Source: Giesbergeria sp. (lineage in GTDB: Bacteria > Pseudomonadota > Gammaproteobacteria > Burkholderiales > Burkholderiaceae_C). From it: a DNA stretch of 34,137 nucleotides. A model generated the notes under the pieces. It saw only the letters and a list, made by a program, of their open reading frames with translations. It did not search any database and had not been told where the DNA came from. How positions within the stretch are numbered: the first letter of the stretch is position 1; every line of letters begins with the position of its first letter. This document shows, in pieces, positions 7,108 through 30,851 of the stretch. Made by a program: the position numbers and the translations under genes. The stretch is from the NCBI GenBank assembly GCA_023150295.1, contig JAKLLE010000038.1:1-34137 (forward strand), written 5' to 3'.

Positions 7108-7225
7108 TACAGGCCCGTGGGCTCTTGGTGGCCAAGGGGGGCTTTGCACTGTTCTTGGTCTTTGAAACTGGCGCGTCCCAGGCCAGGGCCGCCGTGCAAG
7201 GGCCGCCCCGCCGCACCGGCGGCGT

Positions 7226-7264: not shown

Positions 7265-7290
7265 AAGCGGCGCAGCCGCACAGGGGGATG

Positions 7291-8772: not shown

Positions 8773-8800
8773 GGAAAGGGCTACCACAAGGGGTGCTGTA

Positions 8801-9595: not shown

Positions 9596-9615
9596 GTCAG
9601 TCCTCGGTCCAATTT

Positions 9616-9635
9616 GTAACAGGCGCCATTGTTAC
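9616..9635. promoter_or_regulatory. Candidate operator upstream of the OmpR-like gene
   Basis: Perfect inverted repeat GTAACA (9616-9621), 8-bp spacer, TGTTAC (9630-9635). A further half-site GTTACA is at 9683-9688. The region is the 217-bp space between divergent genes for the regulator and the SIMPL protein. Position and symmetry suggest binding by a regulator; binding by the OmpR homologue itself is an inference. Confidence 0.45.
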
Positions 9636-9812
9636 CACTTTGCGGCCCAAAAACCGTGCGGCCCCCCGAGGCTTGACCAATGGTTACAAGTTTTGCCGCC
9701 TGTAGGCAGTTCGGCTGTGGGGCGCAGGCGCACTTGCGGCCTTGGCTGACACGCATGGTGTGCTTGTTTGCGCTATGTTGAGCGTTCTCAACCCGAGTCA
9801 GGACAACACACC

Positions 9813-10526: not shown

Positions 10527-10534
10527 AAACCGGT

Positions 10535-11323: not shown

Positions 11324-11394
11324 GAGTCAATCTCCGAATGAATTACGATGCGACAAACAAGAATTATCGAGCACCGATATTGCAAGGCGCATCC

Positions 11395-12321
11395 ATGATT
11401 GAACCTAGGCTGAACTACGTATCCTGCCCCGGCCCCGCTGCTGTAAGCCAAGGCCAGATTCCCGCGCAGGAACACCGCATGGCCTGGTGGGAATGGAATG
11501 CCACCGGCAACCCGCAGCACCCGCATGTGGTGGTCTGCGTGCACGGCCTCTCGCGCCAGGGGCGCGACTTCGACACCCTGGCCCGCGCACTGTGCCACCG
11601 CGTGCGCGTGGTCTGCCCCGACGTGGTGGGCCGCGGTCACAGCAATTGGCTGGCCGACCCCATGGGCTACCACGTGGGCCAGTACGCTGCCGACATGCTG
11701 GCCTTGCTGCAGCACCTGCACCAGCAGTCCCCGTTGGACGCGCTGGATTGGGTGGGCACCAGCATGGGCGGGCTCATTGGCATGGCCCTGTGCGGTCAGC
11801 CGGGTCTGCCGTTGCCGGTGCCTGTGCGCCGTTTGGTGCTCAACGATGTGGGGCCGGCCATCCAGTGGGAGGCCCTGGTGCGCATTGGTCAGTACCTGGG
11901 GCAGCCGGTGCGGTTTGAATCAGAGCAGCAGGCGGCCGACATGTTGTGGGCGCTGTCCACCGGCTTCGGGCCGCACACGCCGCAACAGTGGATGGATCTC
12001 ACACGTCCCCTGTTGCGTGCGCTGCCAGGCGGTGGCTGGGGCCTGCACTACGACCCGGCCATCGCTGTGCCTTTCCGTGCGCTCACCCAAGAGGCCGCCG
12101 CTGCGGGCGAATCCGCGCTGTGGCAGTGGTACGACCAGATCCAGGCGCGCACGCTGCTGTTGCGTGGCGCGCAGTCTGACCTGCTCTCGCGTGCCACGGC
12201 CCAGGCCATGGGCCAGCGCGGCCCGCGTGCGGCGCTGGTGGAGTTCGAGGGCGTGGGCCATGCGCCCACGCTGGTGGCAGACGACCAGGTGGCGGCAGTC
12301 GCCTCCTTTTTGCTGGACTGA
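11395..12321 (+). CDS. Alpha/beta-fold hydrolase
   Basis: 308-aa cytoplasmic serine hydrolase. Oxyanion loop HGLSRQGRDF after a hydrophobic strand (VVVCVHG), nucleophile elbow GTSMGG, a probable acid near LLLRGAQSDLLS and the catalytic His in EGVGHAPTL, in the order expected of the fold. Substrate cannot be inferred; similar genes are annotated as esterases or lipases. The ATG at 11395 (MIEPRLNYV) is chosen because it is preceded by AAGGCG and starts the conserved part; an in-frame ATG at 11338 would add 19 residues. It ends 14 bp before relA on the same strand, so the two may be co-transcribed. Confidence 0.8.
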   Translation: MIEPRLNYVSCPGPAAVSQGQIPAQEHRMAWWEWNATGNPQHPHVVVCVHGLSRQGRDFDTLARALCHRVRVVCPDVVGRGHSNWLADPMGYHVGQYAADMLALLQHLHQQSPLDALDWVGTSMGGLIGMALCGQPGLPLPVPVRRLVLNDVGPAIQWEALVRIGQYLGQPVRFESEQQAADMLWALSTGFGPHTPQQWMDLTRPLLRALPGGGWGLHYDPAIAVPFRALTQEAAAAGESALWQWYDQIQARTLLLRGAQSDLLSRATAQAMGQRGPRAALVEFEGVGHAPTLVADDQVAAVASFLLD

Positions 12322-12335
12322 GCCGGGACTGCTGC

Positions 12336-14567: not shown

Positions 14568-14614
14568 ACCACATGGATGATTTTTGGCTTTTCGCCAAAG
14601 TGCCTGGAATTTAC

Positions 14615-14623
14615 TGCTACAAT
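14615..14623 (+). promoter_or_regulatory. Extended -10 promoter element for tRNA-Val
   Basis: TGCTACAAT is an extended -10 (TGnTAnAAT) that ends 20 nt before the first base of the mature tRNA. No strong -35 is visible, which is acceptable for an extended -10 promoter. It lies between the relA stop and the tRNA. Confidence 0.5.
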
Positions 14624-14643
14624 CCCATCTCTCGAACAAACAC

Positions 14644-14720
14644 AGGCGCGTAGCTCAGCTGGTTAGAGCACCACCTTGACATGGTGGGGGTCGTTGGTTC
14701 GAGTCCAATCGCGCCTACCA
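14644..14720 (+). tRNA. tRNA-Val (anticodon GAC), CCA encoded
   Basis: A 77-nt cloverleaf: 7-bp acceptor AGGCGCG/CGCGCCT, D-stem GCTC/GAGC, anticodon stem CCACC/GGTGG with loop TTGACAT (anticodon GAC, Val), 5-nt variable loop, T-stem GTTGG/CCAAT with loop TTCGAGT, discriminator A and encoded CCA. All stems pair (one G-T in the T-stem). It is the last chromosomal-type gene before the integrated element; its 3' half is a typical attachment site for tyrosine integrases, though no second copy of it is seen in the window. Confidence 0.95.
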
Positions 14721-15009
14721 AACATTGCAAGCTAAACCAGGGCTTGCAGCAGAAGTGCCCGCTAACAAGCGGGCATTTTTGTTTACCCATACGGAAAAAG
14801 TACGGAAACAAGATTGGCCTTGCGAGGGGCTTTTGTGTTCGTGTTTCTGGTGCCTTCATGGCACTAGAGTGCTTTGCCTACTGGCTCTGTCGGCGCGGGC
14901 ATTTGTGTGGGTTTGTGGTTCACACGCCCTCGTTTCGGCTTTCTAGCGCGGCGGTGAGCAGACATGGTGCGGGCATTCGACAGCCCGTTGGCCGCAGTTC
15001 GTATTCCCG
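14721..15009. other. tRNA-proximal junction region, no gene
   Basis: 289 nt without a convincing gene. It holds the tRNA terminator, then two direct copies of TACGGAAA at 14790-14797 and 14801-14808 (11-bp period, about one helical turn). Such repeats resemble arm-type integrase or excisionase sites, and a third TACGGAAA occurs at 22212-22219. No integrase reading frame or fragment is visible in either strand of this stretch. Base composition drops from here into the following gene. Confidence 0.45.
14756..14784 (+). terminator. Rho-independent terminator after tRNA-Val
   Basis: Stem TGCCCGCT (14756-14763), loop AACA, stem AGCGGGCA (14768-14775), followed by TTTTTGTTT. This is a textbook intrinsic terminator 35 nt after the tRNA. 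Confidence 0.9.
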
Positions 15010-16203
15010 ATGCGTCATCTGCCGATCTATAAAGCTGAGGCCCGTACCGCGAAAGGCTGGATTGAGGAGCCGTTGCTGATGATGGAGCATGACGAGGAAG
15101 AGGTAAACATCGCGATATGGCTGCCGGCGGACTTTCCGATGGATGATCTGCAACTGGTTTGCGGCCTGCTCACGGAGGCAGATTTTTGCGTTCCAGGCTA
15201 CATCCCAGCGCCTGTTGGCCTCTACCACCGAGATGGATTCTTCTACGAACACCACGTTGAGGGCATCAAAACCGTCGTGCTGCCTGACCGCAACGTAGTC
15301 TCAAGGCTTGCGCAACTGGCTCAGGGCAAAGTTGTGCGCCAAGATGAGCAACTCAGGCTATCTGCTGGCCTGCTGGCATTCGCTCAATGTCTGGATATAG
15401 ACGTTGAGCCATCTATTGCGTTCCATGAACTGGCCCACAAACAAGGCAACGAGGAGGCATGGTCCGAGTTGGCGTGGTTTCGTGCTGCTGACAACGCCAG
15501 ACCCCAGGACCTGCTTGATCTCGCGCTCAGTCGGCAGAATGCGCTCGCAGGCCAATACAGCGCCCATAAAGATGTGCCCAGACACGACATGGGTAAGCCC
15601 ATCAAGCGCTGGAATCGAAACTACATCATTGCGCTCAAGATGGTGGAGTTGGAACAGCAGGCTCAACTTCGACCAGTGGATCGCGCCCTCCGTCTCTTCG
15701 ACTGGATGCGGGATGAGTTCATGTTTGGTGGCCCGGCGGCCTTGATGGCGAGCGTGTACTTCGCGCCGAACTCGCCCCCTAAGCGGCGAGTATTCAAGGA
15801 TAAAAACTCCCTGGATCGGGAGGCCGCCATAGCAGGGGTGCGCAATGCCGCTTGGGATCTAACGCACCTGAGCGAATTTGTGCGACGGGTTGCTGAGGAA
15901 GGCCACGAAGGGAAAACGCGGTATCTGTTCGCCAGCTTCGATAGGCATCTGCGTAGCATCGCGAAGCTCCTGATTGACTACGGTACTGATCGGGCAGCAG
16001 ACGACCCATTGCCGCAGGCGCTCTCTCAGTGGTGGGGACGGACTGACGCGGAGCGGATCGTTGCCAGCTTGCGTGCGAATCTTGAACGCATTCAATCGCC
16101 TGCTTGGAAGGCGAAAGTCTTTCCGCGGCCTGATTTCATTGGTGAGTTGATTCGTGAAGGTGAACAGCGCGTTCGGGATGCGTCTCCGGGCAAGGCTGTG
16201 TAG
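15010..16203 (+). CDS. Unrecognised protein with PIN-like nuclease motif pattern
   Basis: 397-aa protein I do not recognise as a named family. It has four acidic residues in PIN-domain-like settings: Asp93 at a strand end (TVVLPDRNVVSRL), Glu140 in a helix (SIAFHELAHKQG), Asp283 (NAAWDLTHLSEFV) and Asp311 (YLFASFDRHLRSIAKLL), the last closely resembling the strand-Asp-helix end of PIN domains. PIN proteins are metal-dependent RNases, often toxins or defence factors; activity here is an inference. Residues 1-85 are acidic and unassigned. No signal peptide, membrane segment or antitoxin-like neighbour is seen. Codon use is less GC-biased than in the flanking genes, suggesting separate acquisition. 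It stands alone, bounded by a terminator region upstream and a long leader downstream. No clear Shine-Dalgarno precedes the ATG at 15010. Confidence 0.6.
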   Translation: MRHLPIYKAEARTAKGWIEEPLLMMEHDEEEVNIAIWLPADFPMDDLQLVCGLLTEADFCVPGYIPAPVGLYHRDGFFYEHHVEGIKTVVLPDRNVVSRLAQLAQGKVVRQDEQLRLSAGLLAFAQCLDIDVEPSIAFHELAHKQGNEEAWSELAWFRAADNARPQDLLDLALSRQNALAGQYSAHKDVPRHDMGKPIKRWNRNYIIALKMVELEQQAQLRPVDRALRLFDWMRDEFMFGGPAALMASVYFAPNSPPKRRVFKDKNSLDREAAIAGVRNAAWDLTHLSEFVRRVAEEGHEGKTRYLFASFDRHLRSIAKLLIDYGTDRAADDPLPQALSQWWGRTDAERIVASLRANLERIQSPAWKAKVFPRPDFIGELIREGEQRVRDASPGKAV

Positions 16204-16384
16204 CGCTGCACGGCAACTGATGGGTGTGCAGCCCATTCCCAAACGTACATTGGTCGACGCGATGGTTCAGGGAATAGGCAGTGCGATACGCCTGTCGGAT
16301 ATCGACGCATTTTTGATGTGTTGGTACCTGCACTGCCATGAGTGACGTGCTACTTCAAATACATTGCGCCCAAATATTTTCCTG

Positions 16385-16616
16385 GCGTCTCCGGCCAGAT
16401 CTGGCCGACCGCGCTGTCGTGCTTGCGCATCGAGCCACCTGCGGCGTCTCGCCCCCTACGGGCTTCCATCATTTCCTCGCCTTGCATGGCTGATGCCTTC
16501 GACCCGGCTCGTTGACCCGGGCCTGCGCGCTGCGCTTGCCTCCAGGGGATCGGCTGTGCAGCCCATCCCCGCCGCGCTGTGCTTGGCGCCCCTTTGATAC
16601 CGCCGAACCGGCCTTG
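16385..16616 (+). repeat. Leader repeat, copy A
   Basis: Shares ordered words with 22367-22566: GCGTCTCCGGCC, GACCGCGCTG, CGAGCCACC, GGCGTCTCG, CGGGCTT, GCTTGCCTCC, GCCCATCCCCGCCGCGC (16561-16577 vs 22508-22524), GCTTGGCGCCCC and GATACCGCCGAACCGG (16596-16611 vs 22544-22559). Identity is high over about 200 nt with small indels. Both copies lie upstream of element genes in the same orientation. Confidence 0.75.
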
Positions 16617-16746
16617 CCAGATCGGCCTTCGCGCCTGCGGCGCTGCGCGCTTTCGCTTGCGTGGGGTCGGCGTGAAGAGCGGGCTGTTGCCTGTCCAGCC
16701 ATCTTTCCTGAATCCATCACCTTGCTCACGACTGTAGCCCGCAGCC

Positions 16747-16831
16747 GGGTGCCGTCAAGGCGCGCAGGGCCGTGTCCTCGGCTGCGCCTGCGGGCCGCAC
16801 CCACCCTGCGCTTGTTTCCTTGACGGCACCC
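16747..16831 (+). ncRNA. Candidate structured RNA: nested 14-bp + 8-bp inverted repeats
   Basis: GGGTGCCGTCAAGG (16747-16760) pairs perfectly with CCTTGACGGCACCC (16818-16831). Directly inside, GCGCAGGG (16762-16769) pairs with CCCTGCGC (16804-16811). The 34-nt apical part is also GC-rich. The structure lies 164 nt before the DUF932 start and has no T-run, so it is not a simple terminator. It may be a regulatory RNA, a protein-binding site or a single-strand origin; function is unknown. Confidence 0.5.
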
Positions 16832-16995
16832 ATCCGCGCGCTCCTGACCGTCGCGGGCGATGAACTCAGGAAAGACGGTGGCAACGAGGCCAACCGGGTT
16901 CTTCGTGCCGCCCCCACCGGAAGCCCGAAGAGGGCTCTGAATCTAGGAATCCGGTGAGGCTTTTTCAACAGCCAACATCGTCAGGAGAAATCACC

Positions 16996-17823
16996 ATGCA
17001 ACTCGCATCCCGTTTCGCGCCGCAATCGCCGGTGCTGCGTTCCGAGCATCCCTTGTCGGATGACCAGATCAGGGTCGTGGCCCCGTCCATCTTCGCGCAA
17101 GCACCGCACGGCAGCCGCTCCGAGCGGTATAGCTACATCCCTACGGCCACCGTGCTGCAGGAACTGAGAGGGGAAGGCTTTCAACCTTTCATGGTCTGCC
17201 AGACCCGTGTGCGCGAGGAAGGGCGGCGCGATTTCACCAAACACATGATCCGGCTGCGCCACGCCAGCCAAATCAATGGCCGGGAGGCCAACGAAATCAT
17301 CCTGCTCAACTCCCATGACGGGACCAGCAGCTACCAGATGCTGGCGGGCATGTTCCGCTTCGTCTGCCAGAACGGGCTGGTGTGCGGCGACACCGTGGCC
17401 GATGTGCGCGTGCCCCACAAGGGCGATGTGGCGGGGCAGGTCATCGAGGGCGCGTATGAAGTCCTAGATGGCTTCGGTCAGGCGCAGCAGTCCCGCGAAT
17501 CCATGCAGGCGATCACCCTGGACGCCGGGGAGTCGGAGGTGTTCGCCCGCGCAGCTCTGACCCTTAAGTACGACGACCCGGCCAAGCCCGCACCCATCAC
17601 GGAAACGCAAATCCTGATGCCGCGCCGCACGGACGACGACGGGCGCGACTTGTGGAGCGTGTTCAACCGCACCCAAGAAAACCTCATCAAGGGCGGCCTG
17701 CGCGCCCGCGCCGCCAACGGGCGCCGCCAGAGCACCCGGCCCGTGCAGGGCATTGACCAGAACCTGCGCCTGAACCGCGCCCTGTGGCTGTTGGCCGATG
17801 GCATGCGCCAGCTCAAGGCCTGA
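16996..17823 (+). CDS. DUF932 (phage/plasmid-like) protein
   Basis: 275-aa protein of the DUF932 family, common on plasmids, ICEs and phages, with no established biochemical role. Visible family features: HGSRSERYSYIPTATVLQEL, EGFQPFMVCQTRVREEGRRDFTKHMIRLRH, EIILLNSHDGTSSYQMLAGM, FRFVCQNGLVCGDTVADVRVPHKG, and the C-terminal NRTQENLIKGGLRARA with RPVQGIDQNLRLNRALWLL. Length is typical. Start at 16996 with AGGAG 8 nt upstream. It is followed 96 bp later by the ParB-like gene, a pairing often seen in such elements. It sits behind an unusually long leader. Confidence 0.85.
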   Translation: MQLASRFAPQSPVLRSEHPLSDDQIRVVAPSIFAQAPHGSRSERYSYIPTATVLQELRGEGFQPFMVCQTRVREEGRRDFTKHMIRLRHASQINGREANEIILLNSHDGTSSYQMLAGMFRFVCQNGLVCGDTVADVRVPHKGDVAGQVIEGAYEVLDGFGQAQQSRESMQAITLDAGESEVFARAALTLKYDDPAKPAPITETQILMPRRTDDDGRDLWSVFNRTQENLIKGGLRARAANGRRQSTRPVQGIDQNLRLNRALWLLADGMRQLKA

Positions 17824-17919
17824 GCTTCGTCCGGAGGGGCGCAGCCCCTCCTGCCATTCCTTGTTTGTCTGACTTCCCATTTTTCTCTTTCCCTTTCTTT
17901 GACCGATAGGAGCTTCATC

Positions 17920-19968
17920 ATGAACACCGCTACCTTTCAAGAAACCAACACCAAACTCACGGGCAGCGCTGCCGCCGCCATGGCGGCTTCGCCGGAACTG
18001 CTGCTGATTCCGTTGTCCAGGCTGCGGCCCTCCAGCCGCAATGTCCGCAAGAGTGGCGGCACTTCGATCCCCGAACTCGCATCCAGCATCGCCCGTGTGG
18101 GCCTCCTGCAAAACCTCACCGTGGTGGCCGCGCCCGATGGCGAGCATTACGAGGTGGTGGCCGGGCGCCGTCGTATGGCTGCCCTCAAACTGCTGGCCAA
18201 GCGCCGCAAACTGGCGAAGGACTACGAGGTCCATTGCCTGCTGGTGCAGGATGATGCGGCGCGCACCGTGAGTCTCACCGAGAACGTTCAGCGCGAGGCC
18301 ATGTCCCCCATCGAGGAACTGTTCGCCTGGAAAGACCTTGTGGCCGAGGGGCGGCCCGTGGAGGATATTGCAGCCGATTTCGGTGTGACACCCTTGGTGG
18401 TGCAGCGGCGCCTGAAGCTCGCCAACGTATCGCCCCGGCTGCTGGCGGACTTCGGTAAGCAGATCGTGACGCTGGAGCAATTGATGGCGCTGGCCATCAC
18501 TGACGACCATGCAGCGCAGGAGGCGGCGTTCTACGAATCACCGCAATGGCAGCGCAACCCGGACGCGCTGCGCGACCACCTGACCAGTGAAGAGATCGAC
18601 GCCAGCCGCGATGCGGTGGCGCACTTTGTCGGGCTGGAGGCGTACGAACAGGCAGGCGGCGGCGTGCGCCGCGACCTGTTCGCGGATGATCACAACGGCA
18701 TCTTCCTGACTGATGGCGCGCTGCTGGACACCTTGGCGCGGGACAAGCTCGTTCCACTGGCCGAGCAGGTGCGTGCCGAAGGCTGGGCCTGGGTGGATGC
18801 CGCTTCGCGTGCCACAGCATCTGACCTGTACCAATTCCAGCGGGTGCGCAGCACACGCCGGGAACCCACCAAGCCCGAGGCCAAGCGCATTGCCAAGCTG
18901 GAAGACCAGCAGGCGAAGCTGCAGGAGCAACTGGACGAAGATAACGATGACATGACCGACGGGCAGGCGCAGGCGCTGCATGACGCCCTGGACGCACTCG
19001 GCAACGAACTGGAGGCCATGGAGCGCCAACTGGTGGAGTACCCGCCTGCCGTGGTGGCGCTGGCCGGTGCCATCGTGTCGGTCGATTCCATGGGCGGGGT
19101 CGTGGTGCACCGTGGCCTGCTGCGAGAGGAACAAGTCAAGGCCCTGCGGGAACAGGCGCGGCAGGAAGAGGACGGGGCGGGCGGCAACCCGGATACCGGC
19201 ACCGACGAGCCTGCCAAGTCAGGACTCTCGGAGAAGCTGGCCAAGCGCCTCAGTGCGCACCGCACGGCAGCGCTGCAGGCCGAGGTGGCTCGGCATCCCC
19301 GCGTTGCGCTGGTGGCTCTGGTGCATCGCCTTGCGCTGCGGGTGATCGTGGAGAGTTATGGGGCGGGAGATTCGGTAGTCAATATTTCTGCGACACCACA
19401 GGATGGGCTTGGACTGCATGCGCCCGACATGGCAGATGCCCCAGCAGCCGTTGGCATGCGCAAGGTGCGGGAGGCCTGGGCCCATCGCCTGCCCAGCGAC
19501 TCGGACGCGTTGTTCGCGGAACTGCTGGCTTTCCCGCAGCAGGAGCTGGTGTCATTGCTGGCGGTGTGTGTGGCTTCCACGGTCAGCGCGCTGGCTTCGC
19601 AGGAAGGAGAAATCCCCGCCACTGCGCTGGCGCAGGCGGTGGACCTCGACATGCACGACTGGTGGACCCCGACCGCTGCAGGCTACTTCGAGCATGTCTC
19701 GAAAGCCAAAGCGCTGGAAGCGGCGCAGGTGTTTGCGCCCGATCAGGTGAACCGGCTGGGCAAGCTCAAGAAGGCCGAGATTGCGACCGAGGCCGAGCGG
19801 CTGGCTGCGGGGACGGGGTGGCTGCCGGTGATGCTCCGGGGGCAGGAATCGGCTGTCGAAGTCGAAGCGGAGGCGGGGCGCGAGGTCGGGGGTGATGCCG
19901 ATGTCTGTGCCGATACCAGCGGCAGCGTCGATTCGAAGGTCCACGAGGACGCACACGCTGAGGCGTGA
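17920..19968 (+). CDS. parB: ParB/RepB/Spo0J-family protein (large, plasmid/ICE type)
   Basis: 682-aa protein. Residues ~25-110 form the ParB nuclease-like (CTPase) domain: PLSRLRPSSRNVRK, HYEVVAGRRRMAALKLL, and box LTENVQREAMSPIEE, followed by an HTH region (VEDIAADFGVTPLVVQRRLKLANVSP). The rest is a long tail with a coiled coil (AKLEDQQAKLQEQLDED, ALDALGNELEAMERQL) and an acidic, repetitive C-terminus. Canonical ParB is about 300 aa, so this is the enlarged form seen on conjugative elements, where it likely acts in maintenance or regulation rather than simple segregation. It is not next to parA (6.4 kb away). Start ATG 17920 with TAGGAG upstream. A strong terminator follows immediately. Confidence 0.85.
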   Translation: MNTATFQETNTKLTGSAAAAMAASPELLLIPLSRLRPSSRNVRKSGGTSIPELASSIARVGLLQNLTVVAAPDGEHYEVVAGRRRMAALKLLAKRRKLAKDYEVHCLLVQDDAARTVSLTENVQREAMSPIEELFAWKDLVAEGRPVEDIAADFGVTPLVVQRRLKLANVSPRLLADFGKQIVTLEQLMALAITDDHAAQEAAFYESPQWQRNPDALRDHLTSEEIDASRDAVAHFVGLEAYEQAGGGVRRDLFADDHNGIFLTDGALLDTLARDKLVPLAEQVRAEGWAWVDAASRATASDLYQFQRVRSTRREPTKPEAKRIAKLEDQQAKLQEQLDEDNDDMTDGQAQALHDALDALGNELEAMERQLVEYPPAVVALAGAIVSVDSMGGVVVHRGLLREEQVKALREQARQEEDGAGGNPDTGTDEPAKSGLSEKLAKRLSAHRTAALQAEVARHPRVALVALVHRLALRVIVESYGAGDSVVNISATPQDGLGLHAPDMADAPAAVGMRKVREAWAHRLPSDSDALFAELLAFPQQELVSLLAVCVASTVSALASQEGEIPATALAQAVDLDMHDWWTPTAAGYFEHVSKAKALEAAQVFAPDQVNRLGKLKKAEIATEAERLAAGTGWLPVMLRGQESAVEVEAEAGREVGGDADVCADTSGSVDSKVHEDAHAEA

Positions 19969-19973
19969 ACATG

Positions 19974-20002
19974 AAGCCCCGGCCGTTGGGCCGGGGCTTT
20001 TT
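19974..20002 (+). terminator. Rho-independent terminator after parB-like gene
   Basis: AAGCCCCGGCC (19974-19984), loop GTTG, GGCCGGGGCTT (19989-19999), with the T-run continuing to 20002. An 11-bp perfect stem starting 5 nt after the stop codon. Confidence 0.95.
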
Positions 20003-20013
20003 GAATAGGCGCG

Positions 20014-20041
20014 ACGCGCGCGGCAGGTCTGCCGCGCGCGT
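20014..20041. repeat. Perfect 28-nt inverted repeat
   Basis: Thirteen-bp arms ACGCGCGCGGCAG (20014-20026) and CTGCCGCGCGCGT (20029-20041) separated by GT. It starts 12 nt after the preceding terminator and has no T-run. Its perfect symmetry suggests a dimeric protein site or a second, extremely stable hairpin. Confidence 0.8.
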
Positions 20042-20204
20042 TGGAACTTCCGAAGTGCCAAGTCTGCTGCGCTCAGAGCGACGGGGTACGCCAGAACTTG
20101 CTGCGGTGGGTGGGAAGAGTCTGCGGGACACGAGAGCATCGAGCAGCACCGATCACCCGGAATACCGCGCTGATCAGGCTTGTGACAACCCACCCGGACA
20201 ACCC

Positions 20205-20669
20205 ATGAACCACCAAGGCGTCAGCGAGATTTTCTTTGAAGAGTCCTACACCGTGCCGGCAGACCAGACGGCGAAGTCGCTCTTTGCCCGGCTGCCACAC
20301 GGCAGCGGCTATGCGGAGCGGTTGATTGAATGCCTTGCCACGGGGTACCTGGTGGCGGTGGTCGAATCCATTTGCATCCGTGAGATGCAGCAGCACGTCG
20401 ATGCGGCCGAAGTGGTGGTTGGCCGAACGATTCGCATCGACCACCGAGGACCTATCCCGCCAGGATCCTCTCTGCGGCTGCGCGGATGGCTGGAACGGAT
20501 GGGGGAGCGGAGCGCGACGTTCCGTGTGCAGGCCTGCGACACGGACGAAATCGTGTGCGAAGCCACTGTCACGCTGGTGGCGGTGCAGCGGACGGCCATC
20601 GAGACGCGCATCGCGGCCAAGGTTGAGGCGCTGCAGCGTGAGCATCAGCCTATGGGAATGGCGCGATAG
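20205..20669 (+). CDS. FlK-like hotdog-fold thioesterase
   Basis: 154-aa hotdog-fold protein resembling fluoroacetyl-CoA thioesterase FlK. The FlK catalytic triad appears conserved in position and context: Thr46 and Glu54 in CLATGYLVAVVESICIREM, and His80 in IDHRGPIPPG, followed by the family-like VQACDTDEIVCEATVTLVAV. FlK hydrolyses fluoroacetyl-CoA; most relatives have unknown acyl-CoA substrates, so detoxification is only one possibility. The ATG at 20205 starts the conserved part. It ends 15 bp before the methyltransferase ATG (3 bp before an alternative GTG), so the two are likely one operon. A thioesterase is unusual among element maintenance genes. Confidence 0.75.
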   Translation: MNHQGVSEIFFEESYTVPADQTAKSLFARLPHGSGYAERLIECLATGYLVAVVESICIREMQQHVDAAEVVVGRTIRIDHRGPIPPGSSLRLRGWLERMGERSATFRVQACDTDEIVCEATVTLVAVQRTAIETRIAAKVEALQREHQPMGMAR

Positions 20670-20684
20670 CCCGTGGATGCGAGG

Positions 20685-21422
20685 ATGCGTCCATACTACC
20701 AGGACGACTTCGTTACCTTTTACCACGGCCGCGCTCAGGACGTGCTTCCGCGCCTGCCCAAGGCCGACGCCATTGTGACCGATCCCCCCTATGCGGAGAC
20801 CAGCCTCCAATGGGACCGGTGGGCCGACGGACGGCCTGCGTTGGCGGGCAAAGTGGCGAACCAGATGTGGTGCTTTGGTTCGACGCGCATGTTCATGGAG
20901 CGTGCAGCGGAATTTGAGGGGTGGCATTTGTCGCAGGACATCGTGTGGGAGAAGCACAACGGCTCGAACGCTTTTGCGGACCGGTTTCGGAGGATCCATG
21001 AACTGGCCCTGCACTTCTACCGGGGCAACTGGCGGGACATCTACAAGGAACCCCAGTTCAGCTACGAGGCCACGGCCCGCTCCCTGCGCCGCAAGAGCCG
21101 CCCCACGCAATGGGGCGGCATGGGGCCCAGCGCCTACACCAGCGAAGATGGCGGGCCGAAGCTCATGGAGAGCGTCATCTATGCGCGCAGCTGCCACGGC
21201 TACGCGGTCAACGAGACGCAGAAGCCCGAGGCCATCGTGGCCCCGCTCATCCAGTACAGCGTGCCGCCAGGCGGACTGGTGGTGGATTGCTTCGCAGGAA
21301 GCGGAACCACCCTGGCAGTGGCCCGCAAGACAGGGCGGCGCTCCATCGGCATCGAGCTTCGCGAGGATCAATGCCAGCGCATCGTGGAGCGGCTGTCACA
21401 ACGCGAATTGCCTGACGCTTGA
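20685..21422 (+). CDS. DNA methyltransferase, beta-class (N6-adenine or N4-cytosine)
   Basis: 245-aa SAM-dependent DNA methyltransferase. Catalytic motif IV DPPY at residues 33-36 (DAIVTDPPYAETSLQWD) comes before the SAM-binding motif I (VVDCFAGSGTTLAVA, near 205), the order that defines the beta class; RRSIGIELREDQC follows. Between them lies a variable region likely to hold target recognition. No restriction endonuclease gene is adjacent, so it is an orphan methyltransferase, possibly protecting the element from host restriction or regulating its genes. The ATG at 20685 (MRPYYQDDFVTFYHG) fits the family start better than the GTG at 20673. Target base and site cannot be read from sequence. 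Confidence 0.9.
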   Translation: MRPYYQDDFVTFYHGRAQDVLPRLPKADAIVTDPPYAETSLQWDRWADGRPALAGKVANQMWCFGSTRMFMERAAEFEGWHLSQDIVWEKHNGSNAFADRFRRIHELALHFYRGNWRDIYKEPQFSYEATARSLRRKSRPTQWGGMGPSAYTSEDGGPKLMESVIYARSCHGYAVNETQKPEAIVAPLIQYSVPPGGLVVDCFAGSGTTLAVARKTGRRSIGIELREDQCQRIVERLSQRELPDA

Positions 21423-21812
21423 GCGTCGGTGACGGCTGGCGTGAGTCGCCTCGGGCGCTGTGCCCAACTGCTGCGCGACGGTGAGGCGGACCGGCGCCGG
21501 GGGCCATGAATCCTTTCTGTACAGGATCACCCCCACAGCGGCCTTGTATATGCCGTGAATCCTGGCTCGGGCACGGCGGTGCTGCACTTCGTTTGCGCCG
21601 CCTCGAGCTTGTTCGCCGCAACCGTCCGGCCCGACAAATTTCCCCTCCGCTGTGCGGATTCCTCGCGCGGCAAATTTCTCGGGCCTCCCGGTCCTTCGCT
21701 GCGCTGCGGCCCCTGTGCTTCGCTGCGGGATGCGGCGCGCCCGACCCTCGCCCATCGGATCACGCCAAGGCCGCGATGGGCGCGACCTGGACAACCTCGA
21801 AAGGACTTCATC
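21423..21812 (+). other. Long structured leader C upstream of the DUF736 gene (no gene)
   Basis: 390 nt with no supportable gene. It holds an inverted repeat GGCCCGA/TCGGGCC around paired ACAAATTTC-like words, two copies of CTTCGCTGCG (21694-21703 and 21718-21727), and a 9-bp perfect inverted repeat CGCCCATCG (21749-21757) / CGATGGGCG (21774-21782) that ends 30 nt before the DUF736 start. It resembles leader A in style, but I see no clear homology to it. Confidence 0.5.
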
Positions 21813-22121
21813 ATGGCCAACATCGGCACCTTCACCACACAGAACGGCAGCTACACCGGCACGGTTCGCACCCTGACGCTCAACGTCAAGGTCCGGCTCG
21901 TGCCCAGCGACAAGGCAAGCGAGAACGCTCCGGACTACCGCGTCGTCGCCGGCAACGGACTGGAGATCGGCGCTGCGTGGAAGAAGCTCAGCAAGGCGGA
22001 GCGTCCCTACCTGTCCGTGACCCTGGACGATCCATCCTTCCCTGCCACCCTCTATGCCCGCCTGGTCGAAGGCGAGGATGGTGCGCACAACCTGATCTGG
22101 TCACGCAGCAAGGGCGACTGA
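21813..22121 (+). CDS. DUF736 family protein
   Basis: 102-aa protein with the full DUF736 signature: MANIGTFTTQNGSYTGTVRT at the start, LNVKVRLVPSDKASENAPDY, GAAWKKLSKAERPYLSVTLD, and a C-terminal HNLIWSR. DUF736 genes are near-constant companions of conjugative transfer and relaxase genes on alpha- and betaproteobacterial plasmids and ICEs; molecular function is not established. Small basic size and the element context suggest a DNA- or RNA-associated role (inference). ATG at 21813 with AAGGA about 9 nt upstream. It is monocistronic: a long leader precedes it and a strong terminator follows. Confidence 0.92.
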   Translation: MANIGTFTTQNGSYTGTVRTLTLNVKVRLVPSDKASENAPDYRVVAGNGLEIGAAWKKLSKAERPYLSVTLDDPSFPATLYARLVEGEDGAHNLIWSRSKGD

Positions 22122-22132
22122 CGTCGCCCTCG

Positions 22133-22158
22133 GCGCCCCGCTCAGCGGGGCGCTTTTG
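22133..22158 (+). terminator. Rho-independent terminator after the DUF736 gene
   Basis: GCGCCCCGCT (22133-22142) pairs with AGCGGGGCGC (22144-22153), followed by TTTTG. Twelve nt after the stop codon. Confidence 0.9.
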
Positions 22159-22785
22159 TCTCAGTGCTTCGGAGGGGAGGGCGGTACGCGAGCTGTTTCG
22201 CCTTTCGGCAGTACGGAAATGCGTGAAAGCGTTCATCCGTATTTGCGGATGGGTGCATTGTTGGATCTGTGTATTTGCTGTTTTGCGGGTTTCCGTGAAT
22301 CCGTCGTGATGGGTTCATGGGACTGCGGTTTTGCGTCAAGGTGTCTTTGTGGCTCTACTGAGTTGTGCGTCTCCGGCCTGGCCGGACCGCGCTGGCGTGC
22401 TGTGCACCGAGCCACCGGAGGCGTCTCGTCCCTGCGGGCTTTCATCGCTGACGCCTTCGCCCCTGCGGTGCTGCGCGCTGTGCTTGCCTCCTAGGGATCG
22501 ACCTGCGGCCCATCCCCGCCGCGCCGGGCTTGGCGCCCCCTCCGATACCGCCGAACCGGCTTGCCGGATCGGCAGGGAGGGCAGTGTCTCCGATGACCGG
22601 CCTGTGTGGTGGACGGACTGGCTTGCTGTTCCCTTCACCGTATCACGCCGATCTCGTCGTCAAGGTCTGCGCGTGCTGTGCACGCTGGCGTCCTGGCGGC
22701 CGTCTTCGAACCCTGACGCCTGCGCTGCGCCGTGCTGCTTCCGGTCTCGGGCAATCCCGCCCTGATTCCTTCCAAGGAGAAGACC
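22159..22785 (+). other. Long structured leader B upstream of the first DUF2958 gene (no gene)
   Basis: About 630 nt with no supportable gene. It includes a hairpin CATCCG-TATTTG-CGGATG near 22235-22252, the leader repeat copy B (22367-22566), and a small stem GCGTGC-TGT-GCACGC near 22670. AAGGAG lies shortly before the ATG at 22786. Short open frames here are Arg/Pro/Ala-rich and look like noise of GC-rich DNA. Confidence 0.5.
22367..22566 (+). repeat. Leader repeat, copy B
   Basis: Homologous to 16385-16616 in the same orientation, with the longest exact words at 22508-22524 and 22544-22560. About 30 nt shorter than copy A through small deletions. It lies 220 nt before the DUF2958 start, against 380 nt before DUF932 for copy A. 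Confidence 0.75.
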
Positions 22786-23133
22786 ATGACGAAGCTCATC
22801 ACGGACGAACAGCGCGCGCAACTGCTGGCCAATGGCCGGCAATCCCTCGAACAAGAAGATTTTGACCCTGCTCCAGTGCTCAAGCTGTTCACCCCGGACG
22901 CCGGTGCGACCTGGCTGCTGACCGAGATGGACCCCGACGGTCACGACCACGTGTTTGGGCTGTGCGACCTGGGGCTGGGCTATCCCGAATTGGGGTGGGT
23001 CAGCCTGGCAGAACTTGCAACTGTGCGTGGCCGGCTGGGACTTCCGGTGGAACGGGACCGGCACTTCACTCCGCAGAAGCGTCTGAGTGTCTACGCACGT
23101 GAGGCGCGTCTTGCGGGGCGGATTGTGGCGTAG
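22786..23133 (+). CDS. DUF2958 family protein (paralogue 1)
   Basis: 115-aa protein of the DUF2958 family, found mainly on plasmids and ICEs; function unknown. It opens with MTKLITDEQRAQLLANGRQS, then PAPVLKLFTPDAGATWLLTE, GLCDLGLGYPELGWVSLAEL and ends with RDRHFTPQKRLSVYAREARL. ATG at 22786 preceded by AAGGAGAAG. A clear paralogue lies at 23669-24010 (roughly 40-45% identity by eye), with a divergent XRE regulator between them. Aromatic and acidic positions of the central block are conserved between the two copies. Confidence 0.85.
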   Translation: MTKLITDEQRAQLLANGRQSLEQEDFDPAPVLKLFTPDAGATWLLTEMDPDGHDHVFGLCDLGLGYPELGWVSLAELATVRGRLGLPVERDRHFTPQKRLSVYAREARLAGRIVA

Positions 23134-23229
23134 CAGTCCCGGGCGCCGCTTCGGTGGTGCCCTTCACTGTGACATAGGCGGTCGCTTCAGTGCTTTGTTC
23201 GGGGCCGACGCGTTCGCAATGAGGAACAG

Positions 23230-23484
23230 CTAAATACCCGCAGTGGCTAAAAGGGTGGATGGGCGAACCTCGAGCGCCTCGGCGATCTTGCTCAGGTTGA
23301 TCACTGCCACGTTGTGCTCGCCTCTCTCGATTCCACCCATGTAGGACCTGTCAATGCCAGCGAGGTCCGCCAATGCTTCTTGAGAAATGTTGCGAGTGGC
23401 ACGCGTACGTCTGATCGCATCGCCTATTGCGATGAGGATCGGGTCTTTTGCGAAAGACGGAGACGGTTTGGCCACAACCGTCAC
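23230..23484 (-). CDS. XRE-family helix-turn-helix regulator
   Basis: 84-aa Cro/C1-type repressor-like protein. The HTH spans residues ~18-70: IGDAIRRTRATRNISQEALADLAGIDRSYMGGIERGEHNVAVINLSKIAEAL (shown here only as landmarks: SQEALADLAGIDRSYMGGIE is the recognition region). The start is a GTG at 23484 and is uncertain; a second GTG is three codons downstream. It is divergent from the second DUF2958 gene with 184 bp between, where it probably binds. Small single-domain XRE proteins in ICEs often control maintenance or transfer genes. Confidence 0.8.
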   Translation of the reverse strand: MTVVAKPSPSFAKDPILIAIGDAIRRTRATRNISQEALADLAGIDRSYMGGIERGEHNVAVINLSKIAEALEVRPSTLLATAGI

Positions 23485-28421: not shown

Positions 28422-28874
28422 ACGGTACTATTTCTCGAGTCTGCGCAGATTGCGTAGTGCGTCCACGCCTGGTGCGGGACTGTACTCAGCCTGCATTGCG
28501 AGCGTGCTCTGTACTACGCCGCCGATGCTTCGGAAATGCACCGACGCATGTGCGCGGGCTCTATTCCACCGTGCAGACTTTTTGCCGCCAGCGTGCAGCA
28601 CCTGCTGCACCTTCGCTGCCTTTGGGGCAGCGCTTCGCACTCGGTGCGTGGCTGGCGGCGGGTCGGAGCCGGGAGCGGATGCGGGGGGCGAAGACGGAGG
28701 GCAAGATAAAAGGGGCGGCACGTGCCGGCCTGCGAAGTCAGTCTGCACGTGGGTTTGGGACAGCACCGCGCTTGCAGCGCTGGGTGCTGTGTAGGCACAC
28801 AACATCGCTAGGCGCCAATGCCTGCCGCGTGCCGCGTTCGATTTGCTGCGCTGCGTTTCTCTGGAGCTTGAGAC
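28422..28874. other. Candidate oriT region between traF and the relaxase gene (no gene)
   Basis: 453 nt. It holds a perfect inverted repeat GTGCAGCA-CC-TGCTGCAC (28593-28610), a 12-bp palindrome CGGCACGTGCCG (28716-28727), and GTGCAGACTTTTTGCC near 28571 with an inverted GTCAGTCTGCACG near 28737. An open frame starting at 28418 is Cys/Arg-rich with no family resemblance, and frames on the other strand are similar in quality, so coding is unlikely. Relaxase genes commonly sit next to their oriT. The nic site cannot be assigned. Confidence 0.45.
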
Positions 28875-30851
28875 ATGGTTTCGCGTAGGGGAGCGCAGGA
28901 TGGGGAGGGGTTTAGGGCACGGCCGGGAGCACCGAAGGCACGCTCAGGTCGGGAGTCGAAGCGCTTTGTCGCGGAGGTGCTGAAGGCCGTTTCGAAGTCC
29001 GGCGCGAAGGCTTCCGGTGCCAAGTGCGCACGGCATGCGTCGACATTTGGAAGGGGCAGAGTCGCTGCAGGTGTAGTGGGGAGCAAACAGGGTGCGAATG
29101 CTCGGCGCGTAGTCATTAAGTCGCGCTTCGTCGTGCTCAAGAGGGCCGGGGCCCAGGCGGTGGCTACGCATCTGCGCTACATCGAACGCGAGGGTACCAC
29201 TCGTGACGGGCAACGCGGGCAGGCCTATGGGGCCGACACGGATACCGCAGACCTGAGGGACTTTGAAGAGCGGGGGCGGGGCGACCGACACCAGTTCCGT
29301 TTCATCGTCTCGGTCGAGGACGCCGCAGAGCTTCAGGATTTGCGCGGCTACACGCGGGAACTGATGGCGCGGATGGAAGTAGACCTTGAAACTCGCCTGG
29401 ACTGGGTGGCCGTCGATCACTGGGATACCGATAACCCGCACACGCACATCGTGTTGCGTGGCAAGGTGGGGCAGGGCAGGGGCGCGAGGGATCTGGTGAT
29501 CGCCCCGGATTACATGGCCCATGGCATGCGCCTGCGCGCGAACGCCTTGGCGAACGAGTGGCTGGGGCCGCGCACCGAGCTGGAAATTCAGCAGGCTCAG
29601 CGGCGTGAGGTGGAGCAGGAACGCTGGACCAACTTGGACCGCACGCTCCAGCGTGAGACCGTGGATGGTCGGCTGGGTGTTGCACGGTTGAATGAGCCGC
29701 GGCTGCAGCGCCAGCGGCAGCTCTTGGTGGGCCGCCTGCAACGTTTGCAGCGCATGGGGCTGGCGAATCAGGTGGACCCGGGCACCTGGTCGGTTTCTGC
29801 AGATGCGGAGAAGACCTTGCGCGCGTTGGGTGAGAGAGGAGACATCGTCCGCACCATGCATCGAGCATTGAAGGATAAGCAGCGTGAGATGGTGGTGTTT
29901 GAAGCTGGCCGAGGCGACCAGGTTGTGGTCGGCCGCGTGGCTGGCAAGGGTCTTGGCGGAGAGTCTCACGACAAGGGGTACCTTGTCGTCGATGGCATTG
30001 ATGGGAGAGCCCACTACGTTGTACTCACTGCTCACGCCAACTTGGAGGACTACCCCACTGGGGCGGTGGTTGAGCTTCGGAGCCTGAACAAGCTACGGGT
30101 GGCAGATCAAAGCATTGCGGCGCTGGCGAGTGATGGGCTGTACCGAACAGATCGCCACCTCTCTGTTGCTCGACGCCAGGCTAAGGCTGGACTCGATCCA
30201 CAGGAGGTTGTTCAGGCTCATGTCCGAAGGTTGGAAGCCTTGCGGAGGGCTGGTGTCGCGGAGCGGGTGACTGAAGGGCTTTGGAAGGTGCCCAATGACT
30301 TGGTGGAGCGTGGTCGGCGGCATGACGCGGATCGATCTGGGGGCATCGTCGTTCAGCTGAAATCGCACTGGCCTATCGAGAGGCAGGTTCGGGCGATTGG
30401 TGCGACATGGCTGGATCAGCAACTGATCGATGGGGGCAAGAGCGTTGGCGATGTTGGGTTTGGACGTGAGGCCGGCAGAGCGATGCGGAGGCGGGCCGAT
30501 TTTTTGGTTGCGCAAGGGTTGGCGAAGCGGGTGGGCATGCGCGTTACCTTTGCGTCCGACGTGTTGGGTACGCTACGCAGCCGGGAGCTCGAGCAAGTCG
30601 CAAAGGACATTTCCGCTGAAACTGGACTGAAACCTCGGCGTGTTGCAGATGGGCAATCAGTGGCGGGAGTTTATCGACGCCACTTGGTGCTTGCGAGCGG
30701 GAGGTTTGCATTGGTAGAAGATGGCACAGGATTCAGCCTGTTGCCTTGGAAGTCCGTCATCGAGCAGCGGGTTGGTCAACAAGTTGTCGGAACGCTGCGA
30801 GGCGGCGATGTTTCATGGAACGTTGGAAGGAGGCTGGAGCATGGACGCTGA
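28875..30851 (+). CDS. VirD2-like relaxase with DUF3363 (RlxS type)
   Basis: 658-aa conjugative relaxase that nicks oriT and stays bound to the transferred strand. A basic N-terminal ~75 residues, then the relaxase core: THLRYIEREG (candidate tyrosine near 100), RHQFRFIVSVEDA, and the metal-binding histidine motif WVAVDHWDTDNPHTHIVL near 178-195. The C-terminal half (from ~300) matches DUF3363 (RLQRMGLANQVDPGTWSV, HVRRLEALRRAGVAERVTEG, WPIERQVRAIGATWLDQQL). Full length for the family. ATG at 28875 with GGAG 9 nt upstream. In relatives it is followed by traG and trb genes, but here catabolic remnants follow within 170 bp. Confidence 0.9.
   Translation: MVSRRGAQDGEGFRARPGAPKARSGRESKRFVAEVLKAVSKSGAKASGAKCARHASTFGRGRVAAGVVGSKQGANARRVVIKSRFVVLKRAGAQAVATHLRYIEREGTTRDGQRGQAYGADTDTADLRDFEERGRGDRHQFRFIVSVEDAAELQDLRGYTRELMARMEVDLETRLDWVAVDHWDTDNPHTHIVLRGKVGQGRGARDLVIAPDYMAHGMRLRANALANEWLGPRTELEIQQAQRREVEQERWTNLDRTLQRETVDGRLGVARLNEPRLQRQRQLLVGRLQRLQRMGLANQVDPGTWSVSADAEKTLRALGERGDIVRTMHRALKDKQREMVVFEAGRGDQVVVGRVAGKGLGGESHDKGYLVVDGIDGRAHYVVLTAHANLEDYPTGAVVELRSLNKLRVADQSIAALASDGLYRTDRHLSVARRQAKAGLDPQEVVQAHVRRLEALRRAGVAERVTEGLWKVPNDLVERGRRHDADRSGGIVVQLKSHWPIERQVRAIGATWLDQQLIDGGKSVGDVGFGREAGRAMRRRADFLVAQGLAKRVGMRVTFASDVLGTLRSRELEQVAKDISAETGLKPRRVADGQSVAGVYRRHLVLASGRFALVEDGTGFSLLPWKSVIEQRVGQQVVGTLRGGDVSWNVGRRLEHGR

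What the first reader, a model, noticed from the sequence alone, without database searches (positions are those of the whole stretch)
16385..22566. Two homologous ~200-nt non-coding leader blocks in front of different element genes
16385-16616 and 22367-22566 share a long ordered series of identical words (e.g. GCCCATCCCCGCCGCGC, GATACCGCCGAACCGG) with small indels, yet lie upstream of unrelated genes (DUF932 and DUF2958). Conservation without coding suggests a shared regulatory module (long 5' leader, promoter or RNA) spread through the element. The two copies are also in direct orientation and could recombine to delete about 6 kb.
Basis: seen in the sequence. Interest (0 to 1): 0.7.

Follow-up and report, generated by a model that had tools for sequence, protein, structure and literature searches.

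The report
Promoters that fold from single-stranded DNA
Two repeated non-coding leaders in a mobile DNA element look like parts of promoters that work only while the element is entering a new cell as a single DNA strand, which would let its first genes be switched on before the second strand is made.

Summary
The repeat is real: 16385-16626 and 22367-22573 align with 182 identities in 205 aligned positions. It is probably not an RNA leader. Beside each copy lies an element on the MINUS strand, the strand predicted to be transferred (T-strand): a Tn4371-type oriT lies near 28700 with its nick-like motif on the minus strand. On the folded T-strand, hairpin arms carry -35/-10 boxes pointing at DUF932 (16758-16731) and, less firmly, DUF2958 (22663-22637); as duplex DNA they point away. 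Evidence: covariation, including relatives on MOBF plasmids; promoter-like sites 118:3 in favour of the T-strand in 81 related sequences; GNA-loop mini-hairpins 361:16; consensus folding stronger on the T-strand than in coding controls. The block is distantly similar to part of the F plasmid's Frpo1/Frpo2 repeats, proven single-stranded DNA promoters, and the window's DUF932 is 53% identical to an F protein encoded next to Frpo1. Against: a strand-neutral wobble count does not favour either strand clearly, and nothing was tested at the bench. Best reading: Frpo-like leaders of a Tn4371-type element; the block's own job is open.

The parts
16385..16626 (-).
   Evidence: core GCAAGCGCAGCGCGCAG at 16523-16539 and GAGAC hairpin at 16431-16451 on the minus strand
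16704..16873 (-). Class I T-strand promoter hairpin of DUF932
   Evidence: ssDNA fold of 16690-16900 z = -7.4; model R1 189.6 bits on minus, 54.2 on plus (the window is one of the model's own sequences); covariation
16731..16758 (-). -35 TTGACG (16753-16758), 16-nt spacer, -10 TACAGT (16731-16736) on the 3' arm of the hairpin
   Evidence: also returned by the general sigma-70 scan
16996..17823 (+). DUF932 gene, 53% identical to the F plasmid DUF932 protein encoded after Frpo1
17920..19968 (+). Large ParB-like gene, 30% identical over a 638-column alignment to the ParB-like F leading-region protein
20673..21422 (+). N6_N4 DNA methylase gene of the same leading region
21500..21812 (-). T-strand hairpin leader of DUF736 (class III; no clear -35/-10)
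   Evidence: z = -4.2; consensus fold T-strand -35.3, plus strand -10.3
21813..22121 (+). DUF736 gene
22367..22573 (-).
   Evidence: core variant GCAAGCACAGCGCGCAG at 22471-22487, GAGAC hairpin at 22408-22428
22620..22758 (-). Class II T-strand promoter-like element of DUF2958
   Evidence: Model R2 146.3 bits (own sequence of the model); the only match listed in the own genome (150 of 8294 candidates scored)
22637..22663 (-). -35 TTGACG (22658-22663), 15-nt spacer, -10 TACGGT (22637-22642) preceded by TGA
   Evidence: that TGN before the -10 is an extended -10 is recalled
22786..23133 (+). DUF2958 gene, ATG 123 nt after the first base of the -35
28668..28753 (-). Conserved oriT core; nick-like TATCTTG|CC at 28700-28708 and inverted repeat at 28717-28726, read on the minus strand
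   Evidence: 22 of 81 sequences matched and aligned, coordinates; [quoted passage not shown]
28875..30851 (+). RlxS-like relaxase (lagging side)
   Evidence: Best match relax_RlxS, 643.6 bits, below its curated cut-off of 850; DUF3363

Best explanation
The two blocks are parts of Frpo-like single-stranded DNA promoter leaders. Steps: (1) the relaxase nicks oriT near 28702 on the minus strand and this T-strand enters the recipient 5' end first, so DUF2958, DUF736, the methylase, ParB and DUF932 are leading-region genes whose template is the T-strand (gene order shown; nick place and polarity inferred). (2) While single-stranded, the T-strand in the leader folds into a long imperfect hairpin whose 3' arm supplies -35 and -10 boxes as non-template strand and whose 5' arm is the template (pairing shown by covariation for the DUF932 type; folding in the cell inferred). 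(3) Host RNA polymerase starts there and transcribes DUF932-ParB and DUF2958 before complementary-strand synthesis (inferred from F Frpo). (4) In duplex DNA the hairpins are gone and the boxes point the wrong way, so expression stops (inferred). The block lies 3' of the promoter hairpin on the T-strand and is a second structured ssDNA module, similar to part of the F Frpo repeats; it probably helps SSB, RNA polymerase or a primase act there (inferred, weak).
For: Promoter-like TTGAC-N15-19-TA[CT][AG][GAC]T: 118 on the T-strand, 3 on the plus strand in 81 sequences of 1.47 Mb; two in the window. Class I spacer is 16 nt in 67 of 67 regex hits near DUF932 and in 27 of 28 members of A5, each wholly on the 3' arm in its own fold. 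Covariation on A5: 26 of 66 pairs and 145 of 1807 cells changed on both sides, score 0.246 against 0.134 shuffled and at most 0.079 slid. Consensus energy -22.4 T against -10.1 plus for class I and -35.3 against -10.3 for the DUF736 leader; the same difference (T minus plus) in 21 windows of the DUF932 coding sequence is +3.3 on average, lowest +0.6. GNA triloops 361 T, 16 plus in 78 leaders; 344 against 69 in shuffles. Block core 236 T, 4 plus at up to 2 mismatches, only the GNA apex base varying freely. 17 of 17 matches of F Frpo1 in the 81 sequences fall in blocks (within 60 nt), in the same orientation. DUF932 53% identical to the F protein. The sigma-70 scan of 16204-23150 gave two sites, both on the minus strand.
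Against: No transcription or conjugation data. The 80 loci were chosen by DUF932 similarity, and A5 holds 5 hairpins of one plasmid, so counts are not independent. The strand energy difference comes from G.T pairs: with G.T forbidden it vanishes for class I (-7.0 T, -8.5 plus), and departures counted on strand-neutral structures are few or undecided (G.T against A.C on the T-strand: class I 8:5, class II 1:0, DUF736 15:9, A5 9:2; on the window's own Watson-Crick structure 138:126, 24:163, 413:516, 90:45; union of both strands' structures 247:297 and 49:91). The promoter hairpins show no similarity to the F leading region (best E 0.038 class II, 0.54 class I). The block match to F is short with large bias (15.2 bits, bias 9.8) and absent from ColIb-P9 (E 0.95). 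Class II single-sequence folding does not differ by strand and its window copy folds no better than shuffles (z -0.6); its 15-nt spacer is short. The window blocks barely out-fold shuffles (z -1.8, -0.3). GNA loops in the window leaders: DUF932 4 T, 0 plus; DUF2958 1 and 1; DUF736 none. 122 of 236 cores have no recognised promoter within 400 nt; 14 of 81 sources lack an exact class I match at 180-420 nt. The DUF736 hairpin has no clear boxes.
Confidence: 0.8

Rival explanations
1. Structured 5' leader RNA (riboregulator or attenuator) transcribed from a plus-strand promoter in front of DUF932 and DUF2958.
For: Leaders are conserved, non-coding and in front of genes. The plus strand of the DUF932 leader also scores with model R1, 54.2 bits. 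Base-pair covariation alone fits either strand, and wobble departures do not decide.
Against: The class I consensus fold is about twice as stable on the minus strand with DNA or RNA parameters, the opposite tilt of the coding control. GNA loops lie mainly on the minus strand, 361 to 16. The sigma-70 scan gave no plus-strand site in 16204-23150. The only Rfam gathering match in the window is a tRNA.
Confidence: 0.09
2. The T-strand hairpins and blocks are mainly priming sites (ssi or primosome assembly sites) for complementary-strand synthesis, with transcription secondary.
For: Several copies per locus on one strand. Frpo is reported to serve transcription and primer synthesis (title of Masai and Arai 1997 in the reference list). 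The block core contains AAGCGN, near the recalled primosome motif AAGCGG.
Against: Near-constant -35 to ATG distance (116-126 nt, 46 of 48) in front of unrelated ORFs, and conserved boxes with fixed spacing, argue for gene expression. AAGCGG alone is also frequent on the other strand (791 T, 448 plus).
Confidence: 0.25
3. Duplex-DNA operators: palindromes bound by the element's ParB-like or other regulator, with minus-strand antisense promoters.
For: Class II has a near palindrome between the boxes (seen in the alignment); as duplex the boxes would fire into the block.
Against: Class I stem sequences diverge while pairing is kept; one-strand GNA loops are not expected for a duplex operator.
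Confidence: 0.06
4. The blocks are mobile repeats (REP-like or transposon debris) without function.
For: Many dispersed copies; GC-rich hairpins; 122 of 236 cores have no promoter-like site nearby.
Against: 222 of 222 copies are on the strand of DUF932, 106 of 118 promoter-like sites have a block core within 400 nt upstream, and 88 of 137 unique contexts keep a stem of at least 5 bp after the core, 2.3% in shuffles.
Confidence: 0.05

Closest known systems
Frpo1 and Frpo2 of the F plasmid (Masai and Arai 1997, cited in the papers, not read; PMC9849209, passages read)
   Same: Repeated non-coding leaders in the leading region; by gene order in front of a DUF932 gene (Frpo1) and of ssb and a ParB-like gene (Frpo2); T-strand is the template; ssDNA is reported to fold into a stem-loop with -35/-10; a stretch within positions 50-122 of the 554-nt Frpo1 repeat is similar to the block.
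   Different: Promoter hairpins are not similar in sequence; boxes and spacing differ; the host element is MOBP/Tn4371-type; no activity has been measured here.
Frpo-like (ssi) sites of ColIb-P9 (IncI1)
   Same: Leading-region sites similar to F Frpo1, two of them before ssb and another gene.
   Different: No match to the block or to the class I or II profiles in the stretch searched.
Phage N4 virion RNA polymerase promoters
   Same: ssDNA hairpins whose 3-nt loop holds a sheared G:A pair and which need SSB (PMC4496689 passages).
   Different: Recognised by a phage polymerase; the class I boxes here look sigma-70 like and the GNA hairpins lie beside them.
Single-strand origin (sso) of ICEBs1 (PMC4595007, title and abstract start in a listing)
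   Same: An ICE element that acts on the transferred single strand.
   Different: A replication origin of a Gram-positive ICE; not compared in sequence here.
Tn4371-family ICEs (ICEKKS102Tn4677)
   Same: Relaxase, TraF, RepA, ParA and an oriT-like core between traF and traI.
   Different: Leading-region promoters are not mentioned in the passages read; the words leading region do not occur in that paper.

Membership tests
Frpo/ssi single-stranded DNA promoters | Lies in the leading region in front of genes whose template is the T-strand | tested here: met
   oriT core at 28668-28753 with minus-strand nick-like motif; the leading genes are plus-strand, apart from a HTH regulator at 23230-23484; similar layout in L154 and L155. 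Nick place and polarity are inferred.
[quoted passage not shown]
   Class I: z -7.4, 27 of 28 members, covariation.
Frpo/ssi single-stranded DNA promoters | Same for the DUF2958 leader (class II) | tested here: inconclusive
   Consensus structure pairs parts of -35 and -10, but single-sequence folding is weak and the strand difference small (-4.4).
Frpo/ssi single-stranded DNA promoters | Sequence homology of the promoter hairpin to known Frpo | tested here: not met
   Class I and II profiles against the F leading region: best E 0.54 and 0.038; ColIb-P9 stretch best E 0.12. Other published candidates were not compared.
Frpo/ssi single-stranded DNA promoters | Sequence homology of the block to the F Frpo repeats | tested here: met
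   Block profile hits the F stretch only inside the two Frpo repeats (E 8.8e-5 and 0.0022); F Frpo1 hits window block B at E 3e-5. Short and weak.
Frpo/ssi single-stranded DNA promoters | RNA polymerase initiates on ssDNA, stimulated by SSB; early transient expression in recipients | not testable with these tools
   No expression data.
Tn4371-family ICE | RlxS relaxase, TraF, RepA/ParA and traF-traI oriT | tested here: met
   RlxS and TraF are the best family matches but below their curated cut-offs.
Tn4371-family ICE | Integrase at the left end | tested here: not met
   ORF 15010-16203 has no family match and is not similar to two related integrases; only distant integrase matches on other contigs. 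The copy may be incomplete.
Cis-regulatory RNA family | Match to a known RNA family, or structure favoured on the transcribed strand | tested here: not met
   Rfam gathering search found only a tRNA in the window; energy tests favour the other strand, wobble counts are undecided.

The most novel reading that the evidence does not exclude
The leaders belong to a wide, unrecognised class of DNA elements that are selected to work as single strands: modular T-strand sequences built from GNA-loop mini-hairpins, a promoter hairpin with fixed box spacing, and a separate docking or priming block. The class would be shared by MOBP elements and MOBF plasmids including F, and would form a coordinated early-expression regulon for establishment in the recipient.
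Probability: 0.43. Interest if true: 0.86.

Novelty: new variant of a known kind. Interest (0 to 1): 0.73.

Why it matters
Work on leading-region genes has covered few plasmids, and two surveys seen in passages found Frpo by BLAST with known or candidate sequences, one adding a box search in a few islands. The promoter part described here shows no match to the F leading region, yet the leader occurs on many elements of beta- and gammaproteobacteria. If true, Tn4371-type elements also switch on establishment genes before the second strand exists, and DUF932 and the large ParB become early genes shared with F. The T-strand-only boxes and GNA loops would give a homology-independent way to find such promoters and to infer the transferred strand from sequence alone.

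Tried and rejected
Peptide coding: five tested overlapping ORFs have no Pfam match and 8 of 10 gaps between the copies break frame. Known RNA: none but a tRNA. The R1 search of 398 genomes of the phylum gave 8 with a match, three of them weak or partial, so it added little diversity; the exact pattern GTCAGSGATGGAAGCCCG gave 2 of 398 genomes. The ATCCTGY nick pattern alone was uninformative (17 window matches, 8 expected). Alphaproteobacterial, Aeromonas and P. aeruginosa plasmid hits (L156-L160) share only the apical loop with other stems, and their layout was not shown to fit; they are not counted as members. A loose box scan of F intergenics found no box pair in the Frpo1/2 regions, so it is no positive control for the box search; there the T-strand folds somewhat better than the plus strand (-88.8 against -82.2, -89.1 against -82.5). 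GNA counts in F leading intergenics were 8 T and 4 plus, not decisive. GNA triloops over the whole 81 sequences were 3055 T and 1949 plus.

Controls mended on review: 15 of the 25 coding windows had energies within 0.5 of zero on both strands and say little; a gap-trimmed control on the DUF932 coding sequence (58 sequences, 21 windows) gave +3.3 (sd 1.5, lowest +0.6). The strand-neutral wobble counts do not support my strand reading; because of them I lowered the best explanation from 0.84 to 0.80, the novel case from 0.45 to 0.43, and raised the RNA rival from 0.06 to 0.09 and the operator rival from 0.05 to 0.06.

Rows dropped before counts: A1 used 58 unique hairpins of 68 class I hits, A2 43 unique of 48 class II hits; A5 used 28 chosen sequences. 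Of 14 of 81 sources without an exact class I match at 180-420 nt, L087 has it at 169 nt, some are cut by contig ends, several have a one-base variant, and L114 has no such leader. The ORF rule found an ORF for 18 of 48 class II sites; I loosened it after seeing this, and one search then found 46 of 48.
Full report
Observation. The two blocks align as described (16385-16626, 22367-22573; 182 of 205 aligned positions identical; score 187 against at most 50 in 300 shuffles), and a search of the own genome with the first leader listed these two places only (40 of 112 candidates scored). Further conserved non-coding DNA follows each, then DUF932 or DUF2958. The wider leader was found in 303 plasmid records, in 9 of 26 genomes searched in the genus and in 95 of 299 in the family at E up to 0.001, some of these weak.

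Setting. The window carries the core of a Tn4371-type element: DUF932, ParB-like, thioesterase-like, DNA methylase, DUF736 and DUF2958, then RepA, ParA, TraF and an RlxS-like relaxase with DUF3363, all on the plus strand, with a HTH regulator at 23230-23484 on the minus strand. For ICEKKS102Tn4677 of this family oriT was mapped to the traF-traI intergenic region, and the paper notes that oriTfinder did not detect it (PMC11448139, passages read). 22 of 81 sequences, window included, match the core of the corresponding window region (many fetched loci may end before it). On the minus strand it reads inverted repeat, then a pyrimidine-rich stretch and TCTTG|CC in 22 of 22; in the window TATCTTG|CC is one base from the MOBP nick consensus YATCCTG|Y (recalled), most others differ at two. 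I infer that the T-strand is the minus strand and that the genes left of oriT form the leading region with the T-strand as template.

Hairpins on the T-strand. The DUF932 leader folds as single-stranded DNA on the minus strand into a long imperfect hairpin (z -7.4); the DUF736 leader also folds (z -4.2); the DUF2958 leader does not fold better than shuffles on its own (z -0.6). On the 3' arm of the DUF932 hairpin lies TTGACG-N16-TACAGT. Read as duplex DNA this promoter points away from DUF932; in the folded strand it points at it. A general sigma-70 scan of 16204-23150 on both strands returned two sites, both on the minus strand, and one is this site.

Test on relatives. 80 loci were fetched by DUF932 protein similarity. 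The pattern TTGAC-N15-19-TA[CT][AG][GAC]T, written from the two window sites, occurs 118 times on the T-strand and 3 times on the plus strand in these loci plus the window (1.47 Mb). 67 are class I sites near DUF932 with a spacer of 16 in all; 48 are class II sites of the DUF2958 type with a spacer of 15; 3 are others, one of them a class I site at another distance. Class II sites precede three unrelated gene groups, RadC-like (31; one member tested with Pfam), a 131-residue protein (12; the member tested has no Pfam match) and DUF2958 (3), with 116-126 nt from -35 to ATG; 2 of 48 had no ORF by the rule used, which I had loosened.

Because these loci are related, divergent members matter more. 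The class I profile gives 13 hits on four plasmids of Paraburkholderia, Burkholderia and Pandoraea (L161-L164; three typed MOBF and MPF_F, one MPF_F without a typed relaxase), all on the minus strand relative to the genes and each before a plus-strand gene, among them DUF3560, methyltransferase and ParB-like genes. Their stems differ in sequence but remain paired. On the 28-sequence alignment A5 with the window's own structure, 26 of 66 pairs and 145 of 1807 cells change on both sides; the covariation score is 0.246 against 0.134 shuffled and at most 0.079 when slid (relatedness can inflate the first comparison and a window-derived structure the second). In 27 of 28 sequences folded singly, the -35, spacer and -10 lie wholly on the 3' arm with 16-nt spacing.

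Which strand. The class I consensus fold is -22.4 on the T-strand and -10.1 on the plus strand; the DUF736 leader -35.3 and -10.3; class II -18.4 and -14.0. In 25 windows of adjoining coding sequence the difference averages +1.2, but 15 of these are near zero on both strands; a better control, 21 windows of the DUF932 coding sequence in 58 sequences, gives +3.3 (sd 1.5, lowest +0.6). Single-sequence energies agree for class I (-69.5 against -56.3) but not for class II (-46.8 against -47.6). The difference rests on G.T pairs: with them forbidden it disappears for class I (-7.0 and -8.5). Departures counted on strand-neutral structures are few and at best tilt to the T-strand (8:5, 1:0, 15:9, 9:2); on the window's Watson-Crick structures they are mixed, and for class II and DUF736 they go the other way (24:163, 413:516), as do the union counts. 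So wobble counting does not decide.

The stronger strand test uses loops: GNA triloops on 3-bp stems number 361 on the T-strand and 16 on the plus strand of 78 DUF932 leaders of 640 nt. Among 3-nt loop types GNA is the most frequent, 344 in 74 leaders against 69 in shuffles and 68 per equal length of coding sequence, while its complement TNC is depleted, 14 against 42. In the window alone the counts are 4:0 (DUF932), 1:1 (DUF2958) and 0:0 (DUF736). GNA loops are known as unusually stable in DNA (recalled); a sheared G:A pair in the loop is described for N4 promoter hairpins (PMC4496689 passages).

The block itself. A profile of the block finds 222 copies in 80 of 81 sequences, all on the strand of DUF932. 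Its best-conserved part on the T-strand is GCAAGCGNAGCGCGCA (236 T, 4 plus, at up to 2 mismatches). N varies freely (A 90, C 59, G 34, T 3 of 186); each other position is at least 95% conserved, as expected for a d(GCGNAGC) mini-hairpin (recalled). It is followed by a stem of at least 5 bp in 88 of 137 unique contexts, against 2.3% in shuffles. Further on lies a hairpin of the form GAGA-stem-loop-stem-GCTC, 57 T and 1 plus by an exact-pair rule; the two window copies contain a G.T pair and fail that rule. 106 of 118 promoter-like sites have a block core within 400 nt upstream, but 122 of 236 cores have no recognised promoter nearby.

Link to F. In 19.5 kb of the F leading region the block profile hits two places at E up to 10, at F 58101-58172 and 63501-63560 (E 8.8e-5 and 0.0022). 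Both lie in a repeat, 58070-58621 and 63458-64011, that by position is Frpo2 (before ssb) and Frpo1 (PMC9849209 passages). Reversed or complemented controls gave nothing below E 2.1. In the other direction F Frpo1 matches the 81 sequences 17 times at E up to 0.01, all 17 inside blocks (within 60 nt) and in the same orientation, including the window at 22402-22454 (79.6%, E 3e-5). The scores are low and composition bias is large, so I call this probable homology. The ColIb-P9 stretch shows no block, although sites there match F Frpo1. The window DUF932 protein is 53% identical to the F DUF932 protein, which by gene order is YgeB behind Frpo1 (inference); the ParB-like protein is 30% identical to its F counterpart. 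Deleting Frpo1 lowered F transfer, and Frpo1/2 were needed for early expression (PMC9849209 passages).

Verdict and limits. The anatomy fits Frpo-like single-stranded DNA promoters well for DUF932, less firmly for DUF2958, and as an unassigned T-strand hairpin for DUF736. Activity, timing and the role of the block are inferred. Searches of the held open-access library listed no paper that by its listing joins Tn4371 elements or DUF932 leaders with single-stranded DNA promoters; none of the 17 papers contains the word Tn4371. Samuel et al. (PMC11541004, passages) and a 2026 survey (PMC12826799, passages) searched for Frpo mainly by BLAST. Supplementary files and most subscription papers were not seen.

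Noticed in passing
15010-16203: The ORF after tRNA-Val (14644-14720) has no Pfam or NCBIfam match and is not similar to the integrases of two related elements; only distant integrase matches lie on other contigs. The left end of this element may be incomplete or of another type.
   Followed up: partly
16940-16968: A second sigma-70-like pair (TTGAAA-17-TAGATT) lies on the minus strand in the highly conserved stretch between the DUF932 hairpin and the gene.
   Followed up: no
L161 (Paraburkholderia phytofirmans pOLGA2) 3069-16734: Six class-I-type hairpins in about 14 kb of one MOBF plasmid, each in front of a plus-strand gene: a possible multi-unit early regulon.
   Followed up: partly
L156-L160: The apical loop (near GGTGCGGCCCGCAGGCGCAGCCGAGGACACGGCC) alone recurs on alphaproteobacterial, Aeromonas and P. 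aeruginosa plasmids with other stems; its role is unknown.
   Followed up: partly
L166 8343-8755 (F plasmid 56342-56754) and around F 52700: Two more leading-region intergenics of F fold strongly on the T-strand (about as strongly on the plus strand) and hold a TTGCAT-N15-TAAnnT-like pair; they may be further ssDNA promoters.
   Followed up: no
20205-20669: A thioesterase-like gene (best Pfam match FlK, fluoroacetyl-CoA thioesterase) sits between ParB and the methylase; unusual cargo for a leading region.
   Followed up: no
L165 7232-7408 (Comamonas antarctica plasmid): The DUF932-type hairpin is kept, but the next annotated gene is a TnpB-family gene on the other strand; no DUF932 gene is listed in the stretch shown.
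   Followed up: no
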